From positions 1 through 64,000 of the forward strand of contig JAHRBS010000008.1 of the NCBI GenBank assembly GCA_024305745.1: 64,000 bases of DNA. Direction: 5' to 3'. Source of the DNA: Polyporus tsugae. Taxonomy: Eukaryota > Basidiomycota > Agaricomycetes > Polyporales > Polyporaceae. This document shows positions 1-25,365 of the stretch, in pieces. The translations under genes were made by a program, and so were the position numbers. The notes beneath the pieces were generated by a model. That model did not search any database. It was not told where the DNA came from and saw nothing but the letters and a program-made list of their open reading frames with translations. Every line of letters begins with the position of its first letter. Position 1 is the first letter of the stretch.

Positions 1-20
1 CCCCCTTCCCAACCCTATTA

Positions 21-158
21 CCCTAACCCTAACCCTAACCCTAACCCTAACCCTAACCCTAACCCTAACCCTAACCCTAACCCTAACCCTAACCCTAACC
101 CTAACCCTAACCCTAACCCTAACCCTAACCCTAACCCTAACCCTAACCCTAACCCTAA
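21..158. repeat. Telomeric repeat tract, 23 x CCCTAA
   Basis: 138 bp of perfect CCCTAA units, preceded by about 20 bp of degenerate C-rich sequence that could be an assembly edge. CCCTAA on the + strand at the left end means the G-rich TTAGGG strand runs outward, as expected for a true chromosome end. The tract ends at 158 and changes directly into non-repetitive subtelomeric DNA. Confidence 0.98.
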
Positions 159-1924: not shown

Positions 1925-1956
1925 TCACATCGCTCCGTGCAAGTCGATCTGCAACC

Positions 1957-5151: not shown

Positions 5152-5249
5152 TGTTTCGTGAAAGTACACCGAACGTGTTTCATACAAATATATGCGTAGT
5201 TTGATTCTCAGCTGCGAGTGTTCGTTTCACGCGTGGCTCGGTCGAGACG
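5152..5249. other. Short 3' spacer after the 1957 gene
   Basis: A unique AT-richer spacer between the stop codon and the left end of the large inverted repeat. It probably holds the 3' UTR; no clear polyadenylation signal was identified. Confidence 0.4.
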
Positions 5250-6502: not shown

Positions 6503-9500
6503 ATGCCCTCCCTCGACAACGTCAGCCACCTCCTCACCATCTGCGCGGACACGCCGGAGTCGTTCACGTGGAACGTTTGGCAAGACCGTACCGGCCTCCT
6601 CGCGATGCCGTTCGGCCCAGAGGCGACTTACAAGACGGCCGGCATGAACAAAAAGGAATACAAATTAGCAAAGGTTTTTTATCGGCGCTGGTTGGAGGAA
6701 GTGGGGTCCGCCAAACGGTTGCAGTTTGTTCGCGGGCGGACCGACGCGCACCAGGAGGGGCGCGTGATCGTGAAGAAGTGGGCGGCTGACAAGTGGGCGG
6801 AATGGGAGATCTCGGAGTTGGTCGCTTCGACTCTCGATACCTGCAGCTTCAAGACGTTCGACGTCCCCAAGGCCCTCAAGCGCGACCAAGTAGTTTATTT
6901 AGTGTAGTTGTTTATTATACGGTTTACTGACTTATGTGCACAGTGGCCGAATGCGACGGACCTCGGTATCCGTGACGTAGTCGCCTCCAACCTCGCCCTT
7001 GCGATGTTCGGCCCCGACTGCGTCACGGGGGTGGGGTCGATCCAGGTCGTCCACATCCCCCTCATGCCGGTCGTTGGGGGTCTCATCGTTTCGGCGTGGG
7101 ACTCGAGGGGGCGGGCGTGGAAGCGGGCGCGTGCGGGCGCGGTCAAGAGCGAGGATAAGTTGGCGCGGGACGTTGCAGGTAAGCCCCAAGTCCCATTTCG
7201 CAGCTTGCAGGCTGACCTTTGTTTGTAGCACTCGAGTCCCCCGACGCAGTGCCCACCCCCTCCGAGATCGCTCGGATCATCCAGCGTATCAAGCGGACGG
7301 TCACCAAGTCGGAATTGTTCGGCGACGCGGCCATGGTGGAGCTCGTCGCTGCGTGGAAGACCAGGCTCGAGCAGATGTACGAGGTGGCGGCGAAAGTCAA
7401 GGAGGCGAAGCACGACCGTAAACACCTTTTGTTACTGTTCTTACATTTGTGTTACTGACGCGTTTGATTTACAGGCATTCCCGCCGGCCTCCTGAAGGCC
7501 CTCAAGGCCCTCGCGGACACGCCAACGGTGCACATCGTCCTGTGCGAGCTCGAGCAAGCGATGGACGACCTCCCCGAACACTACCTCGACGCGGTCGCCG
7601 AAGCTGCCGACGAGTTCGACTTCTCGGACTGGCTGACGGGCGTCGAGGACCTCCAGGACAAGGACCCGCAGGAGCTTTGGGCCGGCCTTGGGCTGAACAA
7701 CGAGCAGATCCCTGGGTTCAACGAGGTCGAGGATCCGCGTGGCGAGGTCAACCCCTGGGACCCGACGCAGTGGGCTAAGTTCGTCAACACCGACAAGGCG
7801 CTCGCTTTCGGTCCCCGGTGGCATCAGCTCGTCGGGATCACGAAGATGTGCGAGCTCATCATCAAGGGCAAACCCCTCCTCCTCATGGACCAAGTCGGCG
7901 TCGGCAAGACGCTCCAGATCGTCGGCGCCATAGTCATGTACCCGATGCTTCGCGGGTACTACCAGAGGAACAAAAGGTTCCCCCCGCAATTCAGTAAGTC
8001 TTTGCCTTTTCTGCTTGTTACTTGCATTTACTAACAGTGTGTATTACAGAGGGCCTGAAGTGCGACACGCCAGACGGGAACTTGCCCGACCGTCCCCACC
8101 TCATCATCGTCCCGGTCCCGCTATTCGACCAATGGATGTTCGAGTTCAAGCGGTACGTCAAGTTCGGCTCTGTCGACATCTACCCGTACAAGCACCAGTG
8201 GGCCCAGTCCGGGAGGATGGCGATCTGGGACGAAGTGTTCCACCTCAAGGACGACAAGCAGACGCTGAGCCACAAGGTTCTGCTCGTCGCGTACACGGTA
8301 AGCAGCCCAGCTTTGTTTATTAACTTCTGAATATGCATGCTAACGTCTGTAGGCCGCCGAGTCCGATTGTTCGCAGCGGTTCACGAACACGAAGAAGATC
8401 GCTCCCCAGCGGCCCGAACGTGACTCCGCGCTGCCCATGAGGTCGATGCTGTACGATTACCAGTTCGGCATCACCACCATCGACGAGGCGGCCAAGATGC
8501 GCAACCCCAGCCACCACTGGACGACGATGAACGAGCTCTCCCTCCTCTCCCACTGCACCATCGCGGCGACGGCGACGCCCATCACGAACTCGCCCTTGGT
8601 AAGTACGTTTCTTATGCTGGTTGTGGGACCATACTGACTGCCCTTTAACAGGACTTGGTGTACATCGGCCGGTGTATCGGGATCCCCGCCTGCGAGGAGG
8701 AAACACTCTTGGTCGACATGAAGAAGAAGCTCATGGCCGCCGCGCGCAAGTCCAACGTCGAGTTCCGCAACGCTCGCGAGGACGGCGACTTCGTACAGGG
8801 GATCCTCAACGGCGAGATTGACCTCCCGGCCAAGAAGGAGCAGGTCAAGCAAATGACCTCGTACACCGTCGCGCTTCGCAAGATGTTCAACGGCCACACC
8901 ATCCGCCGCACCCTGGACGCCGTCGACTGGGAGGGGCGTCCCATCTCGGGGCTGAGCCCTTACGTCGCCCAACAAATAATGCTCACGCCGTTGGACGAGG
9001 AGTCGGAGGTGTTGGAGGCGACAGCAGCCGCGATCGTCGCTGAGCACGACACCGCGCGCACTGCCGCGATGGTTGCGCAGGCTGAAGGACACGTAAGTCT
9101 TCTCGTTCTCGTTGATACTCAAGACACACAGGGCGGACGCTTCGAGACACGACCGGGTCTCGAAGTGTCCGTCCTGGACGGACACACAGGGGCACAGTGC
9201 CGCGTCCCAACATGCGGCAGGCTGGAGTGTCAGAGGTGTCCGTCCAGGACGGACACATAGCGCGCCGATGCCTGTTCACGGTTTCGCACTGGTGGCAATC
9301 GTGATGCAAGCACGGTGGCTGCAGGTGTCCGTCCGGGACGGACACTTCTGCGCTGACTCCTGTCTATGGGCCGGATGCCGCCAAGAGTGTCGTGGATCTC
9401 CGCGAGACCACTGGCAGGCGGGCCCCTCCCTCTCACCTGTCCGTCCCGGACGGACACCCGTGAGTGCCGCCACGGTTGCCACTCCGTCGTGGCCGCACTC

Positions 9501-11881
9501 ACGGGTGTCCGTCCGGGACGGATACCATTGGCGCGTGGGGAGACGAGAAGACATCGGGCAGGCCCCTCGCTCTCCTTGTCCGTCCTGGACGGATAGATTT
9601 CCACTGAGACCTCGTGAAATGCGGCGTGGTGGATTTCACGTCGATTTGTTATTGAACCGCAGGGGCCCATCCCCCGGTGTCCGTCCGGGACGGACACACT
9701 TTGTTCATCTCCACTGTTGCTCACACACTGTTCATCCAGGCTTTCTACGGTCGTTTCCGCCGCAGCCACCTCCACTACAAGCTCCTTGATGACCCGCTCT
9801 GGGCGCCGAAAGATATGGAGGAGTGGGAGGCCACCACCTCTACGAAGCTCCAGAACCTCATCGACATCCTCCTCCATCACCTCGCCGACGACAACGCCCC
9901 GCTCCTTCGCCGCCCCTCGCAAGACAGCAACGACTTGGAGGCGGATCCCGAATGGAAAATGCAGGAGCGCGACGACGAAACCGACTATCCCGACCGCATC
10001 ATCGTCTACATCGCCTTCCCTTCCAACAACCACCTCATCACGAAGGCAATTAACACTTTTCTTCTGTCGTTATCATTACTTATACACTTTGATTTCGCAG
10101 GTCTTGAGCTTCTACGGCATCAAGTACATCGAGGTCAACGGCTCCAAGCGCATGTCCGTGCGCTCAAAGGACATAGCCAAGTTCCGCAACTCCGACCGCG
10201 ACGGACCCCGTGTTTGCCTGTTGTCGAACGTTGGCACGATGGGCCTCAACCTCCCCCAGGCCAACATCCTCGTCGCCTTGGTAAGGTTCTATGTCTTACT
10301 GTTGTTATTTCTTACCTAACATCCAAACAGGATCAAATGTGGTCGCACCAGGACTTGCTTCAACTGATCGGTCGCATTTGGCGCCACCCCCAGAAGAAGC
10401 AGGTGTTGGTTTACCAGCCTTGCCTCGAGCACGCCACGGACATGTTCCTGAGTGTTCTCTCGTTCTCGAAGAACGCGCTCCTCGCTGCCTTCACCAAGTC
10501 GTCGAAGCAGACAAGTAAGTTTTTAATTATTATCTTTATAACTCTAACAGCTGTTTACTAATGTACTGTAGAATCCATCTTCCGTCATCTCCTTCCGGCC
10601 GGGCTCCGGGATGACAGTGACGAGGATGACGAGCCCGAGCCGGAGCCCGCGACGAAGACCAAGGCCAAGCCTGCGGCCAAGGCAGCCACCCGGGCATCCA
10701 CCCGTGCATCCACCCAGGCGTCCACCCGGGCGTCCACGTCCAAGGCCAAGGCCAAGTCGCCCGCCGTTGCTGACGAGGACAAGGAGAGCTCGGAGAGCGA
10801 GGACAAGGAGAGCGAGGACGAGGAGAGCGAGGACGAGCAGCCGAAAGGCAAGGCTAAGGGTAAGGCCAAGGCAGCCCCCCCCGCCTCCACCCGTGCATCC
10901 ACGCCCAAGCCCAAGCCCAAGCCCAAGCCCAAGCCCAAGCCCAAGTCGCCCGCCGTCGTCGCTGACGAGGGCGAGGAGGCCGAGCAACCGAGAGCCAAGG
11001 GCAAGAGCAAGGTCGCCGCCACCGCAAGGGTCGCTCCCGAGGATGACAACGACCAGCAGCCTGAGCCCGCCCCAACCCAGCCCTCCAAGCGCGACCGCAG
11101 GAAGCTCGTGCCAGAAGTGGTGCTCGAATCGCGCCAGTCCCAGTCTGCGCCGGCGGGGAAGAACAGCAAGAAGGACAAGAAGAAGCACCCCGCGCCCGAG
11201 CCCGTGCCCGAGCCCGTGCCCGAGCCAGCCCCCCAGCCCAAGGTGTCCAAGCCCAAGGTTAGGCCTACACCGAGGGCACCAGCGGCCTCATCGTCGGCGT
11301 GCACCGAGGACACACGCGCGGAGCCCGGGCCCTCGCGTCAGACCCGTCCCGACGCCCCCGCCACCCCCAACGCTCCCCCCTTGAAGCGCACGGCCAACGT
11401 GTCAGGGCATCGCGATGAAGAGGTGGACGACGAGCAGAAGGCCAAGCGGCAGAAGAAGAAGGAGAAGAAGGAGAGGCAGGCCCTAAAGCGCAAACGCGAG
11501 GAAGCCGAGAGAGAGCAACTGGCCCAGGCAGTCACCCTCCCCCAGAACTTTCATTTCGACTTCGACGTGGACCCGGCGCCCGAAGGTCGCAGCCCACCGG
11601 CGAAGAGGGTTGCAGGAGAGGGCGCGGGTGCCTCTGGGAGCGGCGCGGGTGCCTCTGGGAGCGGCGCGGGTGCCTCTGGGAGCGGCGCGGGTGCCTCTGG
11701 GAGCGGCGCGGGTGCCTCTGGCTCTTCTCCCGCCGGCGGTCGTGGTGGGGCTTCTGGCGGCCGCGCATCTAGGCGCGACGATAGCGACAGCGATCGGCCA
11801 ATGGAGGCCAAGGACATTTTTCTGAAGCGGGTCGCGGGGAGCGGCCGGCCTGGTAAGGCGAGTCAGCTCGGCCGCAAGTAG
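6503..11881 (+). CDS. Subtelomeric SNF2-family ATPase, 1414 aa, 11 exons
   Basis: Exons 6503-6889, 6944-7178, 7229-7417, 7475-7993, 8050-8297, 8353-8598, 8652-9092, 9740-10045, 10101-10280, 10331-10514 and 10572-11881 join in phase to 1415 codons. Helicase motifs are clear: Walker A (GVGKT, about residue 412), a DEAA Walker B (about 570), motif III (ATATPITNSP, about 597), a motif V-like SNVGTMGLNLP (about 895) and motif VI (QLIGRIWRHPQKK, about 927). These place it with SNF2-type DNA translocases rather than RecQ. The last 430 or so residues are a basic, acidic and proline-rich tail with KP runs and GAGASGS repeats, likely disordered and nuclear. All introns are 50-57 bp except the seventh, which is 647 bp and packed with palindromes. 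The donor of intron 8 is GC rather than GT. By position it resembles the telomere-linked helicases of other fungi, but it belongs to a different helicase family. Confidence 0.93.
9093..9739 (+). repeat. Enlarged intron carrying seven copies of the palindrome
   Basis: This intron of the SNF2-type gene has a GTAAGT donor and a CAG acceptor and is phase 0. It is more than ten times longer than its neighbours. Palindromes lie at 9166, 9237, 9326, 9438, 9506, 9577 and 9678 (19 bp each), with central bases T, A, G, C, G, T and G. A separate 9-bp stem (CTTCGAGAC paired with GTCTCGAAG) lies just before the first copy. The segment between the copies at 9438 and 9506 is itself a near-perfect foldback. 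Confidence 0.92.
11621..11722 (+). repeat. 21-bp coding minisatellite
   Basis: Four complete 21-bp units and one partial unit in the last exon of the SNF2-type gene, encoding repeats of GAGASGS. The unit length keeps the reading frame, so copy number can vary without breaking the protein. Confidence 0.9.
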
Positions 11882-12559
11882 ACTTGTTATTCTTCGCATA
11901 TCGCTCTTGTTTGACTCGGACAACTGTACTATAGCATTCTGGATACGACGCACGGCTGAGATTGTTTGTTGGACTGTCGATAGGACTGTATCTTCCCATA
12001 TGTTTACCTTATCCATACCTCTTAATCTCAATCTGTGACCCCCCCTTCAACAGAACAGCACGGGTTGAATTGCGCGGTACAATAAATGGATGTAGGGCTT
12101 ACCTGCCTTGTCCATGACGGATTCCAAACCTTTTGACGAACAGGCCTGACCAGATCCCCTCCCGACCAGCTCATCTACATTCCTCTCCCCGACGAACTGT
12201 CGCGTCTATCAATCCTCAAGGCTGTGCTCACGTGGAATATCACAGGTGTGTGCTGCTGGCGCTGTGCACCCAGAAGAGCCCGTCCTGGACGGACACGGCT
12301 GCACGGGCACCCACACACCCCTCGCACGACACCTGTCCGTCCAGGACGGACGGCCACGCACCCATGCCTGTCTGGCCCATGTCCAGCCACGTGTGAAAGC
12401 AGCCGTTCGTGCGTGTTCAAGTTCTATGGGTCGTTGTTCAGCGTGCCACTTGTTATTAGCGCAACTTCTCGTTATCCAATAACTATTACTTGCCGAATTT
12501 CATTATGACGAATCACACTCGCAATTGTACAGATGTAAATGGCAGCAGGTGACAGAGCA
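11882..12559. other. Spacer after the SNF2-type gene with two palindromes
   Basis: No gene is supported. Palindrome copies are at 12278-12296 (one end degraded) and 12334-12352. The first 200 bp probably include the 3' UTR of the SNF2-type gene. Confidence 0.6.
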
Positions 12560-12850
12560 GTGGTATCCGTCCTGCACATGCAGTGTGGCAGGTGTCCGTC
12601 CAGGACGGACGGCTGGGGATCGGGGGACGCACGCGCAGTGCGGCAGGTGTCCGTCCAGGATGGACAGGACGGGTGCTCACACCCCAGTGGTATCCGTCCT
12701 GCACATGCAGTGTAGCAGGTGTCCGTCCAGGACGGACGGCCGAGGATGGTGGGACGCACATGCAGTGCGGCAGGTGTCCATCCAGGATGGACGGCTGGGG
12801 ATCGGGGGGCGCACACGCAGTGCGGCAGGTGTCCGTCCAGGACGGACAGG
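12560..12850. repeat. Higher-order tandem array of palindromes
   Basis: Five palindromes at 12593, 12648, 12720, 12775 and 12830 are embedded in repeated flanks containing GCAGTGCGGCAGG and GGCTGGGGATCGGGGG. Spacings are 55, 72, 55 and 55 bp; the segment from 12561 recurs at 12688, so the larger period is about 127 bp. The copy at 12775-12793 has matching changes in both arms. Confidence 0.9.
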
Positions 12851-14049
12851 ACGGGTTCTCACACCACAATGCTATACCGACTGGCATTACTATGTATTGC
12901 TTTGTTCTCATTCAATGCTGCTATTAAACATTGCATCAATAGACGCATTAACATCAGGTCTTGACACCCTGTGTGTTATTATTGGTACACTGGTGTAGAG
13001 TGTATCTGCTCCGTCTTTATCTAGTAAAAAGTTGATGACTAACTCACTACTTCGCCATCAAGTTCTACGTCTACGTGGTGTTCACATAAGCAGCTCATTA
13101 GCTACAGCCACCTCAGGGTGTTAAGCTCCAGACAGATCATCACATTATACACAATATTCGCCTAACACAAATCAATGTAACTCCCAACTTGTAACCCACA
13201 GGCCGTCCTACTAATCCTCACAAGCCAAGATAAGCTGTAGCAGTTTTTGCCTACTGGAAACAGCATCCATCATACCAAGGTTTCTTATTCACTTCGCGCT
13301 TGAAAGAAATAGCCCTCGACGGTCCACCACTGTCAAAGCTAGATTTCGGTAAGCAAACGCCTCTAGAAACAGACAACTTGGGCTTACGGTGGGGTGCTTA
13401 CGTCCCTCAGGCGAGTAGTGGGGCGAACGGGACTGTAAGCCCTTGCAAGACGCCAGGGAGAAGAGTCGACAATGCCCATAGGCTGAGCAGGAGGTGGAGC
13501 CTCGCTGAAGCGCACAGGAGGCAGAGGCTGAATAGGAGGGGGTGGTAATGGGCCTAGAGGAGGAGGGCGGCACGGAGGGAGCTAGCAAACCATATTCATC
13601 AGAGGGGTTGGCATCCTGACAAACATGTGGATCTGACCTTTTCAAGTGAGCGTATTCTAACCCCACGATGCTGTGTTGCATTGTAGTTGGCGAGTTCAAT
13701 TTCGTCGTCAAGCTCCCGCCCAGATACCAAGCAATCGACCCCGAGGTTGTTGGTGAGAACAATGGAGCACTGCCCGGAGTCATTGGTGCCAGACTCCGTA
13801 GAAGTGAGACTCCCATCCTCTCCATGTTCGTCAGCATCCTCCGCAGAGAGCGGGTGAAGGCTCTGAGCATCCACGTCCCGCGGACGCACGGGGGGGCGGA
13901 CAGTCTCGTCGGTACTGGTGCTGGTGCGTGACGCTACGGGGAGGGGGCGCATCGTGACTCAATGCGGGGTCAGTGAGGTCGGGACTGGATTAAATATCCC
14001 GAAAGTGTGAGAGTCGTGCCTTCCTTACGGCAAGGGCTAGGACGACAAA
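12851..14049. other. Region with no convincing gene; possible degraded minus-strand coding remnant
   Basis: 12,851-13,280 is AT-rich with nothing recognisable. On the minus strand between about 13,952 and 13,290 two overlapping frames could encode a short acidic then Pro/Ser-rich protein starting MRPLPVASRTSTS. No domain is recognisable, and joining the frames needs either an unproven intron or a frameshift. I treat it as a possible pseudogene or spurious frame. Confidence 0.35.
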
Positions 14050-14196
14050 GTAAGGCCGAAGTCCGGAAGCTGGCCTAGGGGGAAAATAGTTAGCCCACAA
14101 GCAAAGGTATGCGAAGCTACCGTTTACGGTAAGGTTCCAGCCAAACCACAGCCGAGGAAAGGTCGATGTCAGCCAGTTCTCGGACTTCGACCTTAC
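14050..14196. mobile_element. MITE-like element, 147 bp
   Basis: Terminal inverted repeats of 15 bp match at 14 positions: GTAAGGCCGAAGTCC at 14050-14064 and GGACTTCGACCTTAC at 14182-14196. Complementarity continues inwards with mismatches (GCTGGC with GCCAG). No clear target-site duplication and no coding capacity are seen, so the assignment rests on structure only. Confidence 0.5.
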
Positions 14197-14562
14197 GTCA
14201 TTATATCACTGCCGCGGAGTGCACATGACGGAGTAGAGGTTCGAGATATCCGTCAAAGCTATACTGCGGTTCTGGGACTAAGTCCAACAGGGCAGGCCTC
14301 TCTCCATTGAGGAAGAACATTGACTACGGTTCAATGTCAGCACCTTCGTGCATGGTATCCGTACTTGAGGAATGTGTCGGCCACCACCGTCGTTCGCGCA
14401 GTGCCCGCAGACTCTTGCCCTATAAGTTGCTCATGACGCAATGTGATAACGAAATTGAAGCCTTGACAGCGAAGTACACCCTTAGTTTGTTGTTAATATT
14501 CACTCCAACTGCTGAGGTTAAGCCCCGCACGCATATGTGGTGGACAGGGCCAGTGCAGCAGG

Positions 14563-15119
14563 TGTCCGTCCAGGACGGACAGGTCGGATGTAAGGCCCTA
14601 TGCAAACTGGCCTGTAGAGTTATCATTCGACGCTACTATTAAGTGGTGGATTAATGAATGCATCAATGCCTTTACCTGGCCGAGTTATTAGCACACCAGT
14701 GCGCATTTATTGGGTTCTACTGGTGTTAGCTAATGATTAATAAAAGGTGAATGCGACACTACTCTAAGGCATTAACGGACGCCAGTCATTAGTTCACGAT
14801 CAGTGGTGGGAGCACAGTCAGGCGCCACGCTAGTGGTGTCTGTCCAGGACGGACACCTCTAGCATGGCGCCCGACCGTGTTCCCACCACTGACCGTGAAC
14901 TTACCACTGGCTTCCGTTAATGCCTTAGAGTAGTGTCGCATTCACCTTTTATTAATCATTAGCTAACACCAGTAGAACCCAATAAATGCGCACTGGTGTG
15001 CTAATAACTCGGCCAGGTAAAGGCATTGATGCATTCATTAATCCACCACTTAATAGTAGCGTCGAATGATAACCTTGCAGGCCAGTCTGCATAGGGCCTT
15101 ACATCCGACCTGTCCGTCC
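14563..15119. repeat. 557-bp foldback bounded and centred by palindromes
   Basis: Two arms of about 274 bp are almost perfect reverse complements around position 14846. The centre is itself a palindrome copy (14837-14855). The left end is a full palindrome (14563-14581) and the right end is exactly half of one (15111-15119). The palindrome centres at 14572 and 15120 are mirror images about 14846. No open frame of note lies within. Confidence 0.93.
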
Positions 15120-15355
15120 ACTTCATGCACTAGTCATCTCCAAGACAGGCCATGACATTATGTTACAAAACAATATGCGATATGACAACGTATCAACCAA
15201 CTCCATGCGCAAAATACAGACACCCCCGCCAAACATCGCTATCGCCGACCCAACCATCACGCATGCACCCTCCTCCCGCCTTCTCCGTCCTCTTCGCCTG
15301 CTTTCTCGCCCACTGGAGGGTATCGAGGACGGCCGCCGGAGGACGACATCAACGC

Positions 15356-16054
15356 TCACGGCGCGGCTGTCGAGCCCCAGAACACACCGTGCCTGACAAC
15401 GGTGGTCACTGCAGAGAAACAGTTAGCAACTCTACACCGCGAATAGATCGGGTAATACGCACGCTCGCGGAGACTGGTAACGTCTTGTTTGAGGTACACC
15501 AACAGTTGCACCCTCGCGTCCACGACCTCCGCATCCGCCATTTGCAGCGCGAACTCTGCCCCGTTGGTCACCTCCTGGGCATACTGAGCTGCGGCTTTCT
15601 CGGCCTTCCTGCGTGCTTGCAAGTACGAGTGCATCGCGTTGCTGAAGTTGTCTTGCGCCGCGTTCATCTGCCTCACCCGCGTAATGATGGAGTATTCTTC
15701 ACCAAACTCCCTCAGCGCCCGACTGCTAGGCCGCTCGTGATACGGCAGGCTGGCGAGGTGGCTGTACAGCGTGCTGAACTCGCTATCCACATTCACCAAC
15801 GGAGGCAGCGCGCGCACTAGCATTAGGAATGCTGACATCGCATACGACGCGCTGAACCTAACAGGCTGCGGCCTCGGGCCTGGGATGGGGGTCGATGGTG
15901 GGGATAGGTTACTGGTGACAATGCGGCCGACGAAGGCCTTGAGCTCATAGGACACAAACTGGTCGACAGAGTTCATAGCGGTGAGAATGACAGTGATGCG
16001 ATGGCTGCTCTCCCAACTTGCGGTCCCTTTATATTCATCGCCAGGTGGGCTCAT
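15356..16054 (-). CDS. Unknown subtelomeric protein, copy A, 214 aa, two exons
   Basis: Exons 16054-15463 and 15408-15356 join in phase, using a GTGCGT donor and a CAG acceptor preceded by a GCTAAC branch-type sequence. The start is the ATG of MSPPGDEYKG; an in-frame region continues upstream without a conserved ATG, so the true start could differ. The product is mostly helical, with an alanine- and charge-rich helix in its second half (QARRKAEKAAAQYAQ), and ends in WGSTAAP. I do not recognise the family. Compared with copies B and C, the block after TAMNS has diverged strongly while the segment MSAFLMLVRALPPLVNVDSE is unchanged, suggesting protein-level constraint. It lies in the left arm of the 3-kb inverted repeat. 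Confidence 0.6.
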   Translation of the reverse strand: MSPPGDEYKGTASWESSHRITVILTAMNSVDQFVSYELKAFVGRIVTSNLSPPSTPIPGPRPQPVRFSASYAMSAFLMLVRALPPLVNVDSEFSTLYSHLASLPYHERPSSRALREFGEEYSIITRVRQMNAAQDNFSNAMHSYLQARRKAEKAAAQYAQEVTNGAEFALQMADAEVVDARVQLLVYLKQDVTSLRERAYYPIYSRCRVANCFSAVTTVVRHGVFWGSTAAP

Positions 16055-16538
16055 CCATGCGGCCAGCACCTCCACGGCCTTCCTTTTCACTTCACCGTCC
16101 GTCCCATAAGTCCTCCCTTCTTGCCGGGGTCTCCATCAACACTCCTTAGTACATTCAAGTCCATCAGGTTCATTCTATACATAGACAGTCATGTTCCTCG
16201 GTACCGCGGAACATCCCTTCCCTTCCTTCCTTCTACAACAGAACACGTAATTCCTATATCAGGCCACTTCGTGTCCGCTTCAGAAGCCAATGTGGGCGTG
16301 AACCTACTATATTGTTAATTGACAGAATATGACGTCCTCCCACACTGTGCTATATGTTTTCTACTCTTTGTGTTTCACCTACACATATGTTCTCACTCAA
16401 TTGTAAATGGGATTGAACTCCTGTGAGAAGTGTGTGACGAGACGGTTGTCGAAGTCCTCACCAGCCGAGTGAGTGTCTCTAGCAGCAGTCCTCCAAACCT
16501 ATTCTCGGTTCTACCATCAGTGAAGTTTGCACTCGCAA

Positions 16539-16781
16539 GGGACAGTATCTATTAGTGGCAGTACGTCAGTTGGAGACGTTTGCTGTTTTGGCGGCTCAGC
16601 GAGTACCGCACTTGGTCCCAACCCGTGCAGAGTGTCCGTCCCGGATGGACACCGCTGTCATGACGCCTGACCATACTGCCCTTAGTCTTACAATCAGCTT
16701 CCTTTAATGCCGTAAAGTAGCGTCGCATTCACCTCTTTAATTGTTGGCTAAGACGGGTAGAACACAATAAATGTGCACCAG
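16539..16781. repeat. Central spacer of the 3-kb inverted repeat
   Basis: Contains a palindrome at 16633-16651 with one arm mismatch. The flanks resemble those of the degenerate copy near 18320 and of the copy centred at 14846 (for example, GCACTTGGTC upstream and GACGCCTGACC downstream), indicating an older shared repeat unit. Confidence 0.7.
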
Positions 16782-17265
16782 TTGCGAGTACAAACTTCAC
16801 TGATGGTAGAACCGAGAATAGGTTTGGAGGACTGCTGCTAGAGACACTCACTCGGCTGGTGAGGACTTCGACAACCGTCTCGTCACACACTTCTCACAGG
16901 AGTTCAATCCCATTTACAATTGAGTGAGAACATATGTGTAGGTGAAACACAAAGAGTAGAAAACATATAGCACAGTGTGGGAGGACGTCATATTCTGTCA
17001 ATTAACAATATAGTAGGTTCACGCCCACATTGGCTTCTGAAGCGGACACGAAGTGGCCTGATATAGGAATTACGTGTTCTGTTGTAGAAGGAAGGAAGGG
17101 AAGGGATGTTCCGCGGTACCGAGGAACATGACTGTCTATGTATAGAATGAACCTGATGGACTTGAATGTACTAAGGAGTGTTGATGGAGACCCCGGCAAG
17201 AAGGGAGGACTTATGGGATGGACGGTGAAGTGAAAAGGAAGGCCGTGGAGGTGCTGGCCGCATGG

Positions 17266-17972
17266 ATGAGCCCGCCTGGCGATGAATATAAAGGGACCGC
17301 AAGTTGGGAGAGCAGCCATCGCATCACTGTCATTCTCACCGCTATGAGCTTCATCGACGACTTTGTGCACCAGGAGGTCATCAACTACGTCACCCGGACT
17401 GTCTCCCGCCACCCATCCACACTTACACAATCGACCCCCATCACAGGCGCGACGCTGCAGCCTGCTAGTTTGAACGCGTCGTACACGATGTCGGCGTTCC
17501 TAATGCTAGTGCGCGCGCTGCCTCCGTTGGTGAATGTGGATAGCGAGTTCAGCACGCTGTACAGCCACCTCGCCAGCCTGCCGTATCACGAGCGGCCTGG
17601 CCTTCGGGATCTGCGGGAGTTTGGTGAGGAATACTCCATCATTACGCGGGTCAGGCGGATGAAGGCGATGCAAGACAACTTCTGCGCAGCGATGCACGCG
17701 TACTTGCAAGCACGCGGAAAGGCCGAGGAAGCCGCCGCTGAGTACGCCGAGGAGATGAACCAGAGGACGGAGGGCAAGCTGCACATGGCGGATGCGGAGG
17801 TCACGGAGGCGAAGGCGCGTCTTTTGGCGCACCTCAAAGAAGACATCACGAGTCGCAACGAGTGTGAGTATCAACCCGATCTGTTCGCGGTATAGAGTTA
17901 CTAACTGTTTTCTCTGCAGTGACCACTGTTGTCAGGCACGGTGTCTACTGGGACACAGCAGCGGCACCGTGA
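17266..17972 (+). CDS. Unknown subtelomeric protein, copy B, 216 aa, two exons
   Basis: Exons 17266-17863 and 17920-17972 join in phase (donor GTGAGT, acceptor TGCAG, branch-like TACTAAC). The product is homologous to copy A and ends in VRHGVYWDTAAAP. An upstream ATG at 17218 would add 16 residues, but it exists only in this copy: the matching positions in copies A and C read ACG, so the conserved ATG at 17266 is preferred. The sequence is mainly helical with a charged coiled-coil-like second half; no signal peptide or domain is recognised. It lies in the right arm of the inverted repeat and in the 2462-bp duplication. Confidence 0.6.
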
Positions 17973-18114
17973 GCGCCGATGTCTTGGGTGAGAAAGTAGG
18001 ACGGTGTCTGTACTGCGTGTATTGCTTAATATGTTGTCGCATTGCATATTGTAACTCAATGTCATGGCCTGTCTTGGTCTAGGAGATGGACTTAGTCAAT
18101 GAAGTGGACGGACA

Positions 18115-18519
18115 GCTCAGATGCTTGTCCTGCCTCCCGCTGCAAACTGGCTTGCAAGGTTATTATATCAGTATTGCTTCGTTCAATGCCACTATTAAGT
18201 GGTCAATTGATCAATGCATCAATGTCTTTACCCCGCCGTGTTATTAGCATACGGGACAGTATTCATTAGTAGCAGTATATCAGCTAAGTACTGCACTTGG
18301 TCGCACCCCATGCACAGTGTGTCCGTGCAGGATGGAGACCTATGGCCCGACGCCTGACCGCACACGCACTACCGATGGGCAGAACAACAAGATATGGGCA
18401 CTAGTCTACCAATAATTCAGCCGAATAAAGACTTAAAGATCAGTTAATGTTAATGCATCAATGCACCGCATAATAGGGGCATTGAACGAAACAAAAGAGA
18501 TAGGTGCTTTGTAATGACC
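18115..18519. other. Repeat-derived spacer
   Basis: No gene. Contains a degenerate palindrome at 18320-18338 with flanks like those of the 16633 copy. Present again at 23470-23874. Confidence 0.6.
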
Positions 18520-18900
18520 ATGCAGGCCAGTTGGCACATCATTGCAATATGAGCCAGGTCTAACACCGGACCTGTCCGTCCTGGACGGACACCTGCGGGA
18601 CTGCCCTTGCCCCACCACATGTGCGTGGTCCTATACTCGGCTGTCCGTCCAGGACGGATACCCCTGCTCTGCCCCCTGCTCTCCTTTATTCTCAATAGTG
18701 GCATTGAACGAAGCAAAAGGGATAAGTACTATGTAATGACCATGCAGGTTGGCACATCATTGCAATATGAGCCAGGTCTAACACCGGACCTGTCCGTCCT
18801 GGACGGACACCTGCGGGACTGCCCTTGCCCCACCACATGTGCATGGTCCTATACTCGGCTGTCCGTCCAGGACGGATACCCCTGCTCTGCCCCCCGCTCT
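18520..18900. repeat. Tandem pair of 218-bp units, each with two palindromes
   Basis: Palindromes at 18573, 18642, 18791 and 18860. The first pair recurs 218 bp later with the same 69-bp internal spacing and shared flanks (ATATGAGCCAGGTCTAACAC and CCCCACCACATGTGC). The same array recurs at 23928, 23997, 24146 and 24215 in the second copy of the 2462-bp duplication. Confidence 0.92.
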
Positions 18901-19059
18901 CCTCTATCTTCCCACCCTTATCCTCTTTATATCCTCCTTGCTCACTCCATCAATGTGGATGTAAGTCCACTTACCACTCCGATTCTCAGTTGCTAATACC
19001 GGACTCCTTACTCCCTTATCACATCCGACTTACTGTTCTCTTTGTACGGTGCTGGCGCT

Positions 19060-19207
19060 AATGGTCCCTCGCTTAGGAGCCAAGCGCTTAGCGCTGGCTA
19101 GGCAGGCGCTTAGTGCTGTTTAGCCGGTCGCTTAGGAGGGCTAAACCCTACCCTAGGGGTTATTTCATCCCTAGGGATAGAGGGCTGAGATGTTCCCATA
19201 ACCCTAA
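19060..19207. repeat. CGCTTAG-rich block and interstitial telomere-like end
   Basis: Several CGCTTAG/CTAAGCG-type repeats at about 19073-19138 are followed by ACCCTACCCTAGGGGTT, CCCTAGGG and a terminal ACCCTAA. The duplication ends exactly with this telomere-like heptamer, both here and at 24562. Confidence 0.7.
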
Positions 19208-19225
19208 CGCAAAGTAATCGTTAGC

Positions 19226-19466
19226 GGTCACATGACTAAACCCATGTGACCGATCAGGTGCGTGTTCAGCGCTTGTGTTTGTCTTCGGGTCACATGATGT
19301 TAGCGCTCGGCTTACGCCGAGCGCGTGCCTGCTTATCAGGTGACTAGTCAGGTGATGAACGCGTACACGCGCAAGTCACATGAGTAATAACGTGATTAGG
19401 ACTAAGCAGTCAACAGTCAGAGTGCGACTTCGTCGCACTCTTACTAGGCCGTGCTGACGCACGGCC
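19226..19466 (+). repeat. Cluster of four strong hairpins
   Basis: Perfect stems are: 19226-19234 with 19243-19251 (9 bp, loop 8); 19303-19311 with 19316-19324 (9 bp, loop 4); 19419-19428 with 19432-19441 (10 bp, loop 3); and 19447-19454 with 19459-19466 (8 bp, loop 4). A fifth 7-bp stem pairs 19523-19529 with 19548-19554. No open frame covers them, which is consistent with a structured RNA or foldback DNA directly upstream of the hammerhead ribozyme. Confidence 0.75.
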
Positions 19467-19567
19467 CGTCATCGTCATCACACTTAAGTAATTAAGTCCG
19501 ATCGGAATTAGTCACCCATAACGTGCTATGGCGCAATCGGTCTTATTATAGCACTTGCGTATTACTA

Positions 19568-19641
19568 AGGCAGTCCTGATGAGCCACTTATAAGGCGAAA
19601 CAGGCTGCGGTAGGGATCTCCCCACCGCCTGTCGGCTGCTT
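19568..19641 (+). ncRNA. Type I hammerhead self-cleaving ribozyme
   Basis: All core positions are present in order: CTGATGA (19576-19582), stem II GCC/GGC (19583-19585 with 19594-19596, 8-nt loop), GAAA (19597-19600), stem III, then the GTC cleavage triplet (19631-19633). Stem III pairs 19600-19605 with 19627-19632 without a mismatch and continues as an inner GGT/ACC and GGG/CCC helix. Stem I pairs 19568-19575 with 19634-19641 (8 bp including two G-U). The predicted cut is between 19633 and 19634. Both RNA ends leave through stem I, hence type I, the class known from Penelope-like elements and retrozymes. The A15.1-U16.1 pair and C17 are canonical. This is a sequence-based prediction; activity is untested. 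Confidence 0.9.
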
Positions 19642-20631
19642 CGTCCTAGTCGCGTTCGCGCTCCTCCCTAACCCTTCTTTCCTCTACAAAACATAGAGCA
19701 TACTCCTCTATGTATTCACCATTCTTTCCGACTACCACATGCAGTTTTCACCAACTACATTGTTGTGGTACTTCAAGCGGTTTGCAATTAACTTCTGGTC
19801 ATATGTTCCCCTCCTGCTTATTGTATGTCGCAATCTGTCATACAGTTCTTTTTTATTCAGCGTTGTTATCCATTGGTAGAGCACTCAACCATCGTCTTTT
19901 ATTTGTGTCAACATGAGGATATCTGCTATCACATACATATCATCTGTGTCACATAGTTTATAATAACATTGTATGGATTGCATACATGTATAACATATGA
20001 CCTATGTTTAATTCACTATGCAGTATATGCATTCTTCAGGTGTTCATTCCACATGACAATACATCCTGTCCTTTCATATACAATATACATCTTTATCCTA
20101 TACAATACTTATACCATATTCTGGCGCAAAGGCACACCCCTGTGCATTCACGCCAATCTGTAGATGGATACACCCATCTCCTAGGTTCATACAAAGGCAT
20201 CCTCCAGTTTCAGCAGCAGCGCACACGCACGTCAAGTGCCTGTGCGCGTTTTGCCTCCCCACACCAGCCATACCACATCGAAATTAAACATCCTTTTGTG
20301 TTGTCCTCAACCTCGTTCAGTATGTCCGCAAACGCACAGACACTGCCTCTGCGCTGTCAGTGACGTGTTTTGCACACTGTATAATCCTGCGCAGACGCAG
20401 TGCCTGTGCGTGCGCGCGGAAATTAGCCCTCAACCTATGCCAAACCTAAGGATAACCCGAAGGGTCACTACTTTGTACCTCTGTAATATTTCTGTAGATG
20501 CTCCGTGATAGCAGGTGCCCTGCGTTCTCGCAGATTTTCGGGATTTGTGTGGCCATAACCTGGGTCTAACCATAATCCCCCCCAACTTTGCACCCTTTAA
20601 ATCTAATAGTCAGTTAAATAAGCGATAACAG
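19642..20631. other. AT-rich region without a supported gene
   Basis: Contains CCCTAACCC at 19666-19674, then AT-rich sequence with only short frames and no recognisable product. Around 20,120-20,500 there are repeated TGTGCGTT- and GCACAGACAC-like stretches, but no clear repeat unit. No reverse transcriptase motifs were found in any frame. Confidence 0.5.
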
Positions 20632-21105
20632 TTAAGGAGATAATAAAGAACGTACTGGCTGCCCAGAAGCACTGGTCAATGGCTCAGAATCCATAGCCAT
20701 TTGGTCGACCGGAAGAGGAGGAGGCACCTCTTGTTCAGCAGCAAGGGCTGCAGCAAGTGCATCTGGAGCCTATAGCCAGTGTCAGCAAGGAGATGCATAT
20801 GTTCTGCTAAGTGCACTTACGACCCAGTAGGCGGGCTTGACTTTGCCCAAGTGCTTGTCCAGGGCGGTGCGGCTAATGCAGGTCCTAGTACAGACCTTAC
20901 CATTACTGGACACACACTTGCAAATGATGTCACCTTCACTGTTGCGAGTGACAGTGATCATGGGACCCTTTTGCTCTGCAAAAAGGTGAGGGATCTTCCA
21001 GGTGAAGCGACGGCAGGTGCGATAATGATGGGAGGGATGGCCAGTGAAGAGGTTGTCACAGAAGGTGCACTTCTTGCTGCCAGTAGAGGTTGAAGTAGAA
21101 GCCAT
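20632..21105 (-). CDS. Small Cys/His zinc-finger-like protein, about 140 aa
   Basis: Exons 21105-20821 and 20769-20632 join in phase (donor GTAAGT, acceptor ATAG). The N-terminal half has CTFCDNLF, a downstream HHYRTC, then a CKC, CTRTC and H series, arranged like two zinc-binding modules of the kind found at the start of transposase or transposon-associated proteins. The C-terminal 45 residues are Ala/Pro-rich. No catalytic domain follows. It could be a free-standing DNA-binding protein, the N-terminal remnant of a transposase gene, or a gene with a further unrecognised exon. It lies in the unique segment between the two 2462-bp copies. Confidence 0.5.
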
Positions 21106-21286
21106 GGTGATGAACAGAGAATAGGCAGGTAGGGTGATAACAGATAGATGGTGGTGGTTCAGGTTCAAGAGAGGGTGGGAAAAAATAGACACTGCCAGGA
21201 TTCCATAATAGGAATGCTTGTCTTATCTTATCAGGCTGTCAGCCACCAGTGATTGTAATGACTATGACTGATGCTGCACAGCCACT

Positions 21287-21380
21287 CAAAAAGTCGAATC
21301 GACTTTTTGGGCGCTTTTTTGAACATTATGTAAGCTCCCAATAGCCCAAAAAAGCGCCCAAAAAGTCGAAATGACTTTTT
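21287..21380. repeat. Nested foldback with 21-bp perfect arms
   Basis: 21301-21321 and 21347-21367 are perfect reverse complements (21 bp, 25-nt loop), built around TTTTTGGGCGCTTTTTT. Each arm is extended by its own smaller hairpin: 21287-21297 with 21299-21309 on the left, and CAAAAAGTC with GACTTTTTG on the right. The structure looks like the remains of a small inverted-repeat element. Confidence 0.8.
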
Positions 21381-21489
21381 GAAGACTCTATAGGTGGATG
21401 GACAGAAGCACCACTGGAGGTGCACTAAACAAAGATGATGGTGAAGTTCTCAGAAGAGCTCTAGAAGCATCTGATGTGTGACCTTATTC

Positions 21490-22100
21490 TAGCTCAGCCA
21501 ACTATGAAGTGGCCCCACTATACTTGCAACGCCCTTCCCGAGCACAGATACAGGGTACTTTGTTGGCGCAAGGTCGATTGTGAGGGAACAACAATAGCTG
21601 GCACCTTGAAACCACCTGGAGCGAGGAGGTATGGTCTTGGGGCATCTAGAAACCCACCTCGCCCCACCTCGCCCCACCTCAATCTTGCACAACGGACCTT
21701 GCGCCAACGGATTTGAGGCATATTACGCGGTAGTTGAGATTTTGACATCCGGCATGCAACAACGAAGAAGGCGATGACCTTCAAACTACCTACAGTGCGT
21801 AGCCATAGTCCTTGGGCACCCTACATACCGCCTCGCCCCACCTCGCCCCACCTGGTTGTGGCACAACGGACCTTGCGCCAACGAAAACTCCGAAAAAGGG
21901 TGGAAAATATTGGCGCAAGGGCCGTTGCTCAGCGACGAGCACATGTATGGACATGGAACTTATTGGAGGACGTAGACATAGTCCAGGGCTATCTAGAAAG
22001 TGCCTTGCGCCAGGCAGTTGTTAAGTAGAACGAGGCGTGAAAGCCCTTGCGCCAATTGGCGCAAGGCCCTAAGGGGCTTAGGGCCGGGATTATAGAGATA
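21490..22100. repeat. Repeats containing TTGCGCCA/TGGCGCAA
   Basis: The octamer TTGCGCCA or its complement occurs at about 21563, 21701, 21872, 21911, 22008, 22047 and 22057. Two of these lie in related units with CGCCCCACCTCGCCCCACCT followed by CAACGGACCTTGCGCCAACG. Near 22046-22067 the motif forms a perfect 22-bp palindrome. No gene is supported. This family is unrelated in sequence to the 19-bp palindrome. Confidence 0.7.
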
Positions 22101-24562
22101 GGCTAAGACGGGTAGAACACAATAAATGTGCACCAGTTGCGAGTACAAACTTCACTGATGGTAGAACCGAGAATAGGTTTGGAGGACTGCTGCTAGAGAC
22201 ACTCACTCGGCTGGTGAGGACTTCGACAACCGTCTCGTCACACACTTCTCACAGGAGTTCAATCCCATTTACAATTGAGTGAGAACATATGTGTAGGTGA
22301 AACACAAAGAGTAGAAAACATATAGCACAGTGTGGGAGGACGTCATATTCTGTCAATTAACAATATAGTAGGTTCACGCCCACATTGGCTTCTGAAGCGG
22401 ACACAAAGTGGCCTGATATAGGAATTACGTGTTCTGTTGTAGAAGGAAGGAAGGGAAGGGATGTTCCGCAGTACCGAGGAACATGACTGTCTATGTATAG
22501 AATGAACCTGATGGACTTGAATGTACTAAGGAGTGTTGATGGAGACCCCGGCAAGAAGGGAGGACTTATGGGACGGATGGTGAAGTGAAAAGGAAGGCCG
22601 TGGAGGTGCTGGCCGCATGGATGAGCCCGCCTGGCGATGAATATAAAGGGACTGCAAGTTGGGAGAGCAGCCATCGCATCACTGTCATTCTCACCGCTAT
22701 GAGCTTCATCGACGACTTTGTGCACCAGGAGGTCATCAACTACGTCACCCGGACTGTCTCCCGCCACCCATCCACACTTACACAATCGACCCCCATCACA
22801 GGCGCGACGCTGCAGCCTGCTAGTTTGAACGCGTCGTACACGATGTCGGCGTTCCTAATGCTAGTGCGCGCGCTGCCTCCGTTGGTGAATGTGGATAGCG
22901 AGTTCAGCACGCTGTACAGCCACCTCGCCAGCCTGCCGTATCACGAGCAGCCTGGCCTTCGGGATCTGCGGGAGTTTGGTGAGGAATACTCCATCATTAC
23001 GCGGGTCAGGCGGATGAAGGCGACGCAAGACAACTTCTGCGCAGCAATGCACGCGTACTTGCAAGCACGCGGAAAGGCCGAGGAAGCCGCCGCTGAGTAC
23101 GCCGAGGAGATGAACCAGAGGACGGAGGGCAAGCTGCACATGGCGGATGCGGAGGTCACGGAGGCGAAGGCGCGTCTTTTGGCGCACCTCAAAGAAGACA
23201 TCACGAGTCGCAACGAGTGTGAGTATCAACCCGATCTGTTCGCGGTATAGAGTTACTAACTGTTTTCTCTGCAGTGACCACTGTTGTCAGGCACGGTGTC
23301 TACTGGGACACAGCAGCGGCACCGTGAGCGCCGATGTCTTGGGTGAGAAAGTAGGACGGTGTCTGTACTGCGTGTATTGCTTAATATGTTGTCGCATTGC
23401 ATATTGTAACTCAATGTCATGGCCTGTCTTGGTCTAGGAGATGGACTTAGTCAATGAAGTGGACGGACAGCTCAGATGCTTGTCCTGCCTCCCGCTGCAA
23501 ACTGGCTTGCAAGGTTATTATATCAGTATTGCTTCGTTCAATGCCACTATTAAGTGGTCAATTGATCAATGCATCAATGTCTTTACCCCGCCGTGTTATT
23601 AGCATACGGGACAGTATTCATTAGTAGCAGTATATCAGCTAAGTACTGCACTTGGTCGCACCCCATGCACAGTGTGTCCGTGCAGGATGGAGACCTATGG
23701 CCCGACGCCTGACCGCACACGCACTACCGATGGGCAGAACAACAAGATATGGGCACTAGTCTACCAATAATTCAGCCGAATAAAGACTTAAAGATCAGTT
23801 AATGTTAATGCATCAATGCACCGCATAATAGGGGCATTGAACGAAACAAAAGAGATAGGTGCTTTGTAATGACCATGCAGGCCAGTTGGCACATCATTGC
23901 AATATGAGCCAGGTCTAACACCGGACCTGTCCGTCCTGGACGGACACCTGCGGGACTGCCCTTGCCCCACCACATGTGCGTGGTCCTATACTCGGCTGTC
24001 CGTCCAGGACGGATACCCCTGCTCTGCCCCCTGCTCTCCTTTATTCTCAATAGTGGCATTGAACGAAGCAAAAGGGATAAGTACTATGTAATGACCATGC
24101 AGGTTGGCACATCATTGCAATATGAGCCAGGTCTAACACCGGACCTGTCCGTCCTGGACGGACACCTGCGGGACTGCCCTTGCCCCACCACATGTGCGTG
24201 GTCCTATACTCGGCTGTCCGTCCAGGACGGATACCCCTGCTCTGCCCCCCGCTCTCCTCTATCTTCCCACCCTTATCCTCTTTATATCCTCCTTGCTCAC
24301 TCCATCAATGTGGATGTAAGTCCACTTACCACTCCGATTCTCAGTTGCTAATACCGGACTCCTTACTCCCTTATCACATCCGACTTACTGTTCTCTTTGT
24401 ACGGTGCTGGCGCTAATGGTCCCTCGCTTAGGAGCCAAGCGCTTAGCGCTGGCTAGGCAGGCGCTTAGTGCTGTTTAGCCGGTCGCTTAGGAGGGCTAAA
24501 CCCTACCCTAGGGGTTATTTCATCCCTAGGGATAGAGGGCTGAGATGTTCCCATAACCCTAA
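22101..24562. repeat. 2462-bp duplicated segment, copy 2
   Basis: Near-identical to 16746-19207. The left junction follows GATTATAGAGATA. The right junction is ACCCTAA followed by sequence resembling the end of a retroelement. It carries gene copy C and palindromes at 23928, 23997, 24146 and 24215. Confidence 0.95.
22621..23327 (+). CDS. Unknown subtelomeric protein, copy C, 216 aa, two exons
   Basis: Exons 22621-23218 and 23275-23327 correspond exactly to copy B plus 5355 bp. The two protein sequences differ at only a few residues (for example, R to Q in YHERPGL and M to T in RMKAMQD). Splice sites, branch sequence and stop are conserved. The upstream ATG available to copy B is absent because of two base changes, which supports starting at MSPPGDEYKG. 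Function unknown. Confidence 0.6.
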
Positions 24563-24771
24563 ATGAATTGACCGCGCACCTTGTGGCTCAACTCGCCGCG
24601 ATGTTCGGACGTGTAGCCGTCGACAATGACGATGCGGTGTCCTTGGGTTGGAGGTCTGAGAATGACGAAGAACACGACGTCGACTTGGAGAGGCCTGAAT
24701 ACCGCCCGGAGGACGAGGAGCCGCGCGCGCTCACACCAGATCCTGTGGACGAACCAATGGGATGTGCTTGA
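24563..24771 (+). pseudogene. Possible truncated 3' end of a retroelement polyprotein
   Basis: A frame open from the junction encodes about 67 residues rich in acidic and Pro residues (ending in DPVDEPMGCA), then stops just before an LTR-like sequence. The frame begins abruptly at the end of the duplicated segment, so any upstream coding part has been lost. There is no diagnostic domain in what remains. The assignment rests on position and composition and is tentative. Confidence 0.35.
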
Positions 24772-25365
24772 TTCGGACTTTTGTTTTCTTCGTTGGGTTG
24801 ATTCTGATTTTGTCTTGCCGTCTGCGTGGTTGGGTTAGCTGGGAGTAGGACTCCTTTACACGAGTCCTGGAGGGCGGGTATAAGGGACCAGCGCTTCTCC
24901 CTTCCGCATACGGCCTCATTTCCCTTTTCGGATACTCGTTATACGTATGCTCGCTTACTTACGATCGCACGTTCCTTTATCTCCTTATCTCTCATGTGTT
25001 TCTTTCGTTCACCCTCGTCTCTTGGTTACTGACACCCTCGGACTTCTCGGCAGTCCCTCGATACTCGTACCGCTATATACACTGGATGTATCCACCCTAG
25101 CAGGCTAGCTTTCGAGATACAACGACTCTTGCCTACTCACTTGTCTCGTCTCGATTCTCTCGTGTCATTCGACGACTTCGACTCAGCCTTCGCTTGCGCT
25201 CAAAGCCACCAGCTCGCCTATCGAAGACGCCGATAGCTCACAGTGCGCCAACCAACGTCTGTGTGATCGCAATCTTCTTGCTTCACGACGACAACCCTCG
25301 TTAACTCGAAAGCTATTCGCATTCTAGTTAATGACTGACTGAGACATTACCTGAGACTACAGGAG
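24765..25365 (+). mobile_element. Probable solo or 3' LTR of a retroelement
   Basis: About 600 bp starting near TGTGCTTGATTCGG and ending near GAGACTACA. It has a promoter-like GGGTATAAGGG at about 24876 followed by pyrimidine-rich CTCG-repeat sequence, the layout of many fungal Ty3-type LTRs. Only one copy is in the window, so the ends and any target-site duplication cannot be confirmed. Confidence 0.4.

What the first reader, a model, noticed from the sequence alone, without database searches (positions are those of the whole stretch)
19568..19641. Complete type I hammerhead ribozyme in subtelomeric DNA
The invariant core (CTGATGA, GAAA, A15.1-U16.1 pair, GTC triplet) and three stems are all satisfied on the + strand, with an uninterrupted 6-bp stem III and an 8-bp stem I. 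Type I hammerheads are known from Penelope-like retroelements and retrozymes, and endonuclease-deficient Penelope-like elements (Coprina in basidiomycetes, Athena in rotifers) are telomere-associated. Here no reverse transcriptase is visible, so this may be a remnant, a non-autonomous relative, or an independent self-cleaving RNA.
Basis: partly seen in the sequence, partly recalled or inferred. Interest (0 to 1): 0.92.

Follow-up and report, generated by a model that had tools for sequence, protein, structure and literature searches.

The report
Ribozyme-tipped retroelement at fungal telomeres
Near one chromosome end of a fungus (likely a Ganoderma relative) lies the tail of a truncated jumping gene that carries a complete hammerhead motif, predicted to cut its own RNA, followed by telomere-matching letters through which such elements likely attach to chromosome ends; eight copies in the genome share this tail, which likely makes it a new member of a known kind of system.

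Summary
It is not chance: the core occurs at eight places in the 43-Mb genome, all inside one shared module, against none for the reversed pattern. The module is the 3' end of an endonuclease-less Penelope-like retroelement: on contig C14 two hammerheads 5,093 nt apart enclose a long ORF whose 75%-identical relative models best as a telomerase-type reverse transcriptase. All eight copies end past the hammerhead in CCCTAACCC, the complement of the telomere overhang; seven are cut short at their 5' side at varying points. The window copy is a protein-less remnant. No copy ends at the cleavage site, so the reverse-transcribed RNA was uncleaved or re-ligated. In the window the module is one link in a chain of repeats; of the families searched genome-wide, every copy assignable to a chromosome end but one points its 3' end inward. 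Hammerhead plus telomere complement is already described for rotifer Terminons; this is a fungal member with a full third helix. Cleavage is untested.

The parts
19568..19641 (+). type I hammerhead motif: stem I 19568-19575/19634-19641, core CTGATGA 19576-19582, stem II 19583-19585/19594-19596, GAAA 19597-19600, stem III 19600-19605/19627-19632; predicted cut between 19633 and 19634
   Evidence: eight genomic copies
19201..19674 (+). 3'-terminal module of the Penelope-like element (5'-truncated copy without any ORF of the element)
   Evidence: aligns to C14:949825-950290 at 92% and, with later 5' starts, to C3, C2, C1 and C7 and to the second C14 copy and C16
19666..19674 (+). CCCTAACCC, complement of the telomeric G overhang, 3' end of the element; present at the same place in 8 of 8 copies
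16746..19207 (+). family B repeat whose fixed 3' end (GTTCCCATAACCC) abuts the 5'-truncated end of the module
20486..20602 (+). family C repeat 3' end (...CACCCTTTAAAT), a fixed 3' end with a different flank at each of the eight places read
20603..22102 (+). family D repeat, 3' end GGGATTATAGAGATAGG
22101..24562 (+). second family B copy (99.6% identical to 16746-19207)
20..158 (.). terminal (CCCTAA)n telomere array of contig C8

Best explanation
The 74 bases form a complete hammerhead motif in the 3' end of a 5'-truncated, protein-less copy of what is likely a Penelope-like retroelement without an endonuclease; the motif is predicted to self-cleave in the element's RNA, and the CCCTAACCC behind it likely served as the annealing site by which that RNA was reverse-transcribed onto a chromosome end. 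SHOWN by sequence: eight copies share the module; all reach CCCTAACCC, with 0 to 7 further telomeric letters; seven are truncated 26 to about 380 nt before the core, the eighth continues into the element. That near-complete copy on C14 reads [147-bp partial module with hammerhead]-CCCTAACCC-42 nt-ORF-long 3' region-[module with hammerhead]-CCCTAACCCTAACCC, period 5,093 nt. INFERRED: (1) transcripts carry a hammerhead upstream of the ORF and another at the 3' end; (2) cleavage would give a 5,093-nt unit whose leader starts 105 nt before the start codon; (3) reverse transcription is primed by a G-rich telomeric 3' end paired to CCCTAACCC and not at the cut ends, because no copy begins or ends at the cut, so the template was uncleaved or re-ligated into a circle; (4) the cDNA end was then capped by telomere repeats or by further elements, which makes the chain seen in the window. 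The window copy itself most likely has no present function.
Confidence: 0.72

Rival explanations
1. The copies were spread by recombination between chromosome ends (break-induced replication at interstitial telomere repeats), like other subtelomeric repeats, and not by fresh retrotransposition; the hammerhead is only carried along.
For: Families B and C, next to the module, lie near contig ends in one orientation (B 15 of 15 places by contig coordinate; C 17 of the 17 assignable among 20 that reach the 3' end); 15 of 15 B rows are 98-100% identical, one of them a 36-nt piece; 16 kb of the window's subtelomere is shared with C16 at 96-99%.
Against: The module copies are older and more varied: 85-93% identical to the window copy and 92.6-97.5% among C1, C2, C3, C7 and C14. 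Their 5' ends differ, except that C14 (upstream) and C16 share one, their 3' flanks differ, except for C1 and C14 (upstream), and they share an exact 3' end, as expected of separate reverse-transcription events.
Confidence: 0.2
2. The ~470-bp module is a non-autonomous element of its own (retrozyme- or SINE-like) that borrows the reverse transcriptase.
For: The two longest module stretches (window and C14) both begin at CCCTAA[C/T]GCAAAG, and five of eight copies (C2, C3, C7, C16 and the window) have no RT attached.
Against: On C14 the module is continuous with the RT unit, behind telomere-like repeats that can explain the shared breakpoint; the other truncated copies are shorter and staggered; the module holds one hammerhead, not a body between two.
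Confidence: 0.1
3. The linear RNA made by hammerhead self-cleavage is the direct template of reverse transcription.
For: The two hammerheads on C14 would excise a 5,093-nt unit.
Against: 0 of 8 copies has an end at the cut; all run through it on both sides. A search with the tail alone gave 7 hits, all among the 8 loci (it missed the window copy, whose tail lacks about 21 bp, so short diverged pieces could escape). A search with the upstream part alone gave 6 hits, all among the 8.
Confidence: 0.05
4. The window copy is a working self-cleaving element of a subtelomeric non-coding RNA, kept for the host's use.
For: The core is intact, and one stem I pair changed on both sides in this copy while its cut site is GUC.
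Against: One compensatory pair is within chance (95 of 500 shuffles); no transcript evidence was available.
Confidence: 0.04

Closest known systems
Terminons / Athena, telomere-attached Penelope-like elements of bdelloid rotifers
   Same: No EN domain in the RT protein; hammerhead directly followed by complement of the telomere repeat at the 3' end; 5'-truncated copies in head-to-tail or interspersed arrays (PMC6431247 section 8; the name Athena from recall).
   Different: Here the CCCTAACCC repeat of a fungus, a ~5.1-kb unit in which no second long ORF was noted (one search prints only the 60 longest ORFs of the fetched stretches), and a full helix III; PLE and Terminon hammerheads are described as minimal, lacking helix III or the loop contacts (PMC7761336 passages).
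[quoted passage not shown] Gladyshev and Arkhipova 2007 not held)
   Same: Fungal host, telomere association, no endonuclease found.
   Different: No sequence comparison with Coprina was possible; whether published Coprina elements carry this hammerhead could not be checked.
Penelope/Poseidon elements with endonuclease (Anolis PAc)
   Same: Pseudo-LTR arrangement with a hammerhead near the start of the ORF; reverse transcription starts inside the RNA and not at its end (PMC11167929, parts 1 and 2 of 4 read).
   Different: PAc has a GIY-YIG endonuclease and cuts AT-rich DNA; its hammerhead showed no activity without the protein.
Retrozymes
   Same: Hammerheads at both ends of a retroelement unit; circular RNA (PMC6155905 and PMC7761336 passages).
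   Different: Retrozymes are short (600-1000 nt), non-coding and non-autonomous; this unit is 5.1 kb and encodes an RT.
FoTeR and MoTeR telomere retrotransposons of ascomycetes
   Same: Fungal retroelements joined to telomere repeats; truncated FoTeRs outnumber full ones and sit with telomere-linked helicases (PMC12857005 passages; MoTeR from a search listing).
   Different: FoTeRs are described as non-LTR retrotransposons (listing); the words ribozyme and Penelope do not occur in that paper's main text.

Membership tests
Hammerhead ribozyme, type I | invariant core CUGANGA ... GAAA ... A15.1-U16.1 and an NUH cut triplet | tested here: met
   intact in 8 of 8 copies; GUC in the window, GUU in seven. 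Recognition by Rfam at gathering score, a detection criterion and not a defining trait, failed.
Hammerhead ribozyme, type I | three helices, strand open at stem I | tested here: met
   standard pairs at every position of stems I, II and III in all 6 distinct rows; two rows have one mismatch in the extra hairpin above stem III
Hammerhead ribozyme, type I | loop-loop or bulge tertiary contact between stems I and II | not testable with these tools
   secondary-structure tools only
Hammerhead ribozyme, type I | self-cleavage | not testable with these tools
   needs in vitro transcription
Penelope-like elements without endonuclease (telomere-associated) | telomerase-related reverse transcriptase | tested here: met
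Penelope-like elements without endonuclease (telomere-associated) | no GIY-YIG endonuclease | tested here: met
   no such Pfam match at E <= 1 in the C14 ORF or P0001; the last part of the C14 ORF is lost to a stop
Penelope-like elements without endonuclease (telomere-associated) | pseudo-LTR or partial tandem structure | tested here: met
   partial module joined to the element's 5' end on C14 and C1
Penelope-like elements without endonuclease (telomere-associated) | 3' end joined to telomere repeats | tested here: met
   8 of 8 copies reach CCCTAACCC
Penelope-like elements without endonuclease (telomere-associated) | location at chromosome ends | tested here: met
   5 of 8 within 39 kb of a contig end, 1 of 8 (C1) 2.4 kb from an internal telomere array, 2 of 8 (C14) 113.5 and 118.6 kb from the contig end
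Coprina clade | position in an RT tree with Coprina references | not tested
   no reference sequence at hand; the relatives of the RT that bear an organism name in the list are from Psilocybe cubensis
Retrozyme | short non-coding body between two hammerheads | tested here: not met
   hammerheads 5,093 nt apart around an RT ORF

The most novel reading that the evidence does not exclude
The hammerheads excise a 5,093-nt RNA that is re-ligated into a circle; a shortened telomere anneals to CCCTAACCC inside the circle and the telomerase-like enzyme copies past the starting point, rolling-circle fashion, which puts a partial hammerhead module of variable length exactly upstream of a full copy. The enzyme then jumps to the 3' ends of other RNAs and so builds mixed, one-directional chains on chromosome ends.
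Probability: 0.22. Interest if true: 0.8.

Novelty: new member of a known kind. Interest (0 to 1): 0.5.

Why it matters
[quoted passage not shown] This fungal family gives a small, clean data set: eight copies whose ends all miss the cleavage site while all share a telomere-complement 3' end. That separates 'the ribozyme makes the template ends' from 'telomere pairing sets the start', and makes the circular-RNA idea testable by one outward-facing RT-PCR. It also points to a fungus with ordinary TTAGGG telomere arrays whose chromosome ends carry a parasite with a telomerase-like enzyme.

Tried and rejected
Rfam at gathering score over the window: nothing. At relaxed score near the motif: a type III match of wrong topology and a weak FsrA match. 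Rfam over 16500-24800: only weak microRNA-like matches on palindromes; that scan did not list the hammerhead itself either, so it does not exclude ribozymes in families B-D. The descriptor scan finds no second hammerhead in the window. A loose hammerhead pattern over the genome gives 312 places against 180 for the reversed control, too unspecific to use, and only the first part of its list was shown. RVT_1 family search: 150 of 242 candidates scored; the RT loci are not among them. Relatives of P0001 in viral contigs: none confirmed. PDB by sequence: no RT match for the C14 ORF or the two-row profile, only unrelated weak ones, and one weak bacterial RT, E = 0.17, for the 61-row profile. Pfam on six relatives: one weak RVT_1, five nothing, although many relatives carry precomputed PF28514 and PF26215 labels whose names no call gave. 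Single-sequence fold of P0001: pLDDT 34.6, not used. The duplication 16746-19207 / 22101-24562 was first suspected to contain the hammerhead; it stops at the module's 5' edge. Family C in the window was first taken as 925 bp; only its last 117 bp are shared with the other copies examined, and 19675-20485 stays unassigned. In one search the row for the upstream C14 copy aligned to family C instead of the module, so its 5' end is read, and 3' ends are read. In one search the position labelled H17 for the upstream C14 copy is one base off (it is the base after it); corrected spacing 5,093. An earlier count said the hammerhead is the minimum-energy fold in 7 of 8; the exact result is within 0.1 kcal/mol in 8 of 8.

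Full report
OBSERVATION. The + strand at 19568-19641 reads as a complete hammerhead opening at stem I: 8 bp of stem I, CTGATGA, a 3-bp stem II with an 8-base loop, GAAA, a 6-bp stem III that continues into a further hairpin, and GTC with the cut expected after 19633. A scan for the whole descriptor finds this one place in the window and one hit in total in 500 dinucleotide-preserving shuffles. Rfam does not recognise it at its thresholds. I take that as a limit of the models, because the stricter evidence is genomic.

GENOMIC COPIES. The window is contig C8:1-64000 of a 43.2-Mb genome in 18 contigs. The host is likely a Ganoderma relative: the ORF at 42565-43890 is 83% identical to a G. leucocontextum protein, and the named matches are Ganoderma species apart from two of Dichomitus squalens. 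The core pattern has eight exact places (C1, C2, C3, C7, C8, C14 twice, C16) against none for the reversed pattern. A DNA search with 19540-19680 finds the same eight loci (13 matching pieces). The eight motifs are 97% alike per column, with six distinct rows; every pair of stems I-III is kept, one pair differs on both sides in the window copy, and the window has GUC where the other seven have GUU. Such few, similar copies can give only weak covariation; it neither proves nor excludes selection.

WHAT THE MODULE IS. All eight copies run past the motif to the same end, CTCCCTAACCC, followed by 0-7 more telomeric letters and then by other sequence. Upstream, seven break off at points from 26 to about 380 nt before the core; the eighth, on C14, continues into a longer element. 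Two copies are joined downstream to the same sequence, A[C/T]ATCGAG..., which on C14 leads after 42 nt into a long ORF: 1,043 codons between stops, 1,028 from the first ATG. On C1 it is a broken piece of the same ORF. On C14 the ORF is followed by a long 3' region with telomere-like repeats and then by a full module with a second hammerhead. The two predicted cuts are 5,093 nt apart. This is the pseudo-LTR layout of Penelope-like elements.

TELOMERE LINK. Five of eight copies lie 7.7-38.8 kb from a contig end (C7, C2, C3, C8, C16), one (C1) 2.4 kb from a right-facing telomere array inside C1, and two (C14) 113.5 and 118.6 kb from the contig end. In the five near-end copies the 3' end points to the chromosome interior; the C1 copy points the other way and is an inverted fragment between two copies of another repeat; C14 cannot be assigned. 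The orientation fits extension of the G-rich 3' overhang on an RNA that pairs through CCCTAACCC.

WHAT THE COPY ENDS SAY ABOUT THE RIBOZYME. The cut lies 58 nt after the first base of the core. The 5' ends lie before the core and the 3' ends all lie past the cut; 0 of 8 copies begins or ends at it. Searches with the tail alone, the upstream part alone and the middle of the element found no copy bounded at the cut and no internal fragment beyond a 50-nt match; the tail search missed the window copy, so very short or diverged pieces could have escaped. The RNA that was reverse-transcribed was therefore either not cleaved or had been re-ligated. In the Anolis element, too, reverse transcription starts inside the RNA, and unprocessed RNA is thought to be the dominant substrate in vitro (PMC11167929). 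The exact joint CCCTAACCC-A[C/T]ATCGAG behind two upstream modules of different length means that a unit-to-unit joint was present in the template, as in a tandem transcript or a circle; these data cannot tell the two apart.

THE CHAIN. The 5' edge of the window copy abuts the fixed 3' end of another repeat (family B, 16746-19207). Its 3' side leads, after an unassigned 0.8 kb, to families C, D and B again. The truncated module copies on C2, C3, C7, C14 and C16 likewise abut 3' ends of families E, D (a diverged form), C, C and B, in C2, C3 and C7 with 2-3 shared letters at the joint (my reading); on C16 three families follow each other, one as a 36-nt piece. Genome-wide, family B has 15 of 15 places with the 3' end inward by contig coordinate, and family C 17 of 17 assignable places (20 reach the 3' end; one on C10 and two on C14 are not assignable). 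D and E were seen only in the stretches fetched. Such order can come from serial end addition, template jumping or exchange between chromosome ends; the near-identity of family B favours exchange for that family. The descriptor scan finds no second hammerhead in the window, so not in its B, C and D copies.

KNOWN AND NEW. Hammerhead plus telomere complement at the 3' end of endonuclease-less Penelope-like elements is described for rotifer Terminons (PMC6431247 section 8). Penelope-like and Terminon hammerheads are described as minimal, lacking helix III or the loop contacts, with unknown role (PMC7761336 passages; also PMC6155905 passages). From recall, Cervera and de la Pena 2014 reported more stable monomeric variants in fungi; that paper, the Terminon paper and the Coprina paper are not held. 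I saw no paper on a fungal hammerhead-telomere element in the listings of searches (some capped, 57 at 20 of 182 and 73 at 12 of 30); given those gaps I claim no priority. I file it as a new member of a known kind, with a full helix III and an informative set of copy ends.

CERTAINTY. Presence of the motif and its place in the 3' end of this element family: about 0.95. Penelope-like, endonuclease-less: about 0.9. Telomere-primed addition: about 0.7. Self-cleavage of the family: about 0.7; of the window copy if transcribed: about 0.6. Circular template: about 0.2-0.25.

Noticed in passing
G000 C1:4980513, C5:2104668, C7:3990782, C9:3264468, C11:2437491: Right-facing internal telomere arrays on five contigs, each followed 5.86-5.88 kb further by a reverse-transcriptase match of identical score: one shared block beyond an interstitial telomere.
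   Followed up: no
window 159-16538: Subtelomere shared with C16:5526-21992 at 96-99% identity, with a weak SNF2-helicase match (7528-8034, E = 0.073); possibly a telomere-linked helicase gene.
   Followed up: partly
window 5240-5947, 14573-15119 and 21286-21382: Long palindromes (80-94% self-complementary), the last one hit by microRNA models.
   Followed up: no
window 16746-19207 and 22101-24562: Family B, 2.46 kb, 99.6% identical twice in the window; 15 places genome-wide, all 3' end inward, with a 225-aa ORF of unknown family.
   Followed up: partly
G000 C14:950290-950420: Degenerate telomere-like repeats inside the retroelement just before its 3' module; may be an older telomere cap taken into the element.
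   Followed up: no
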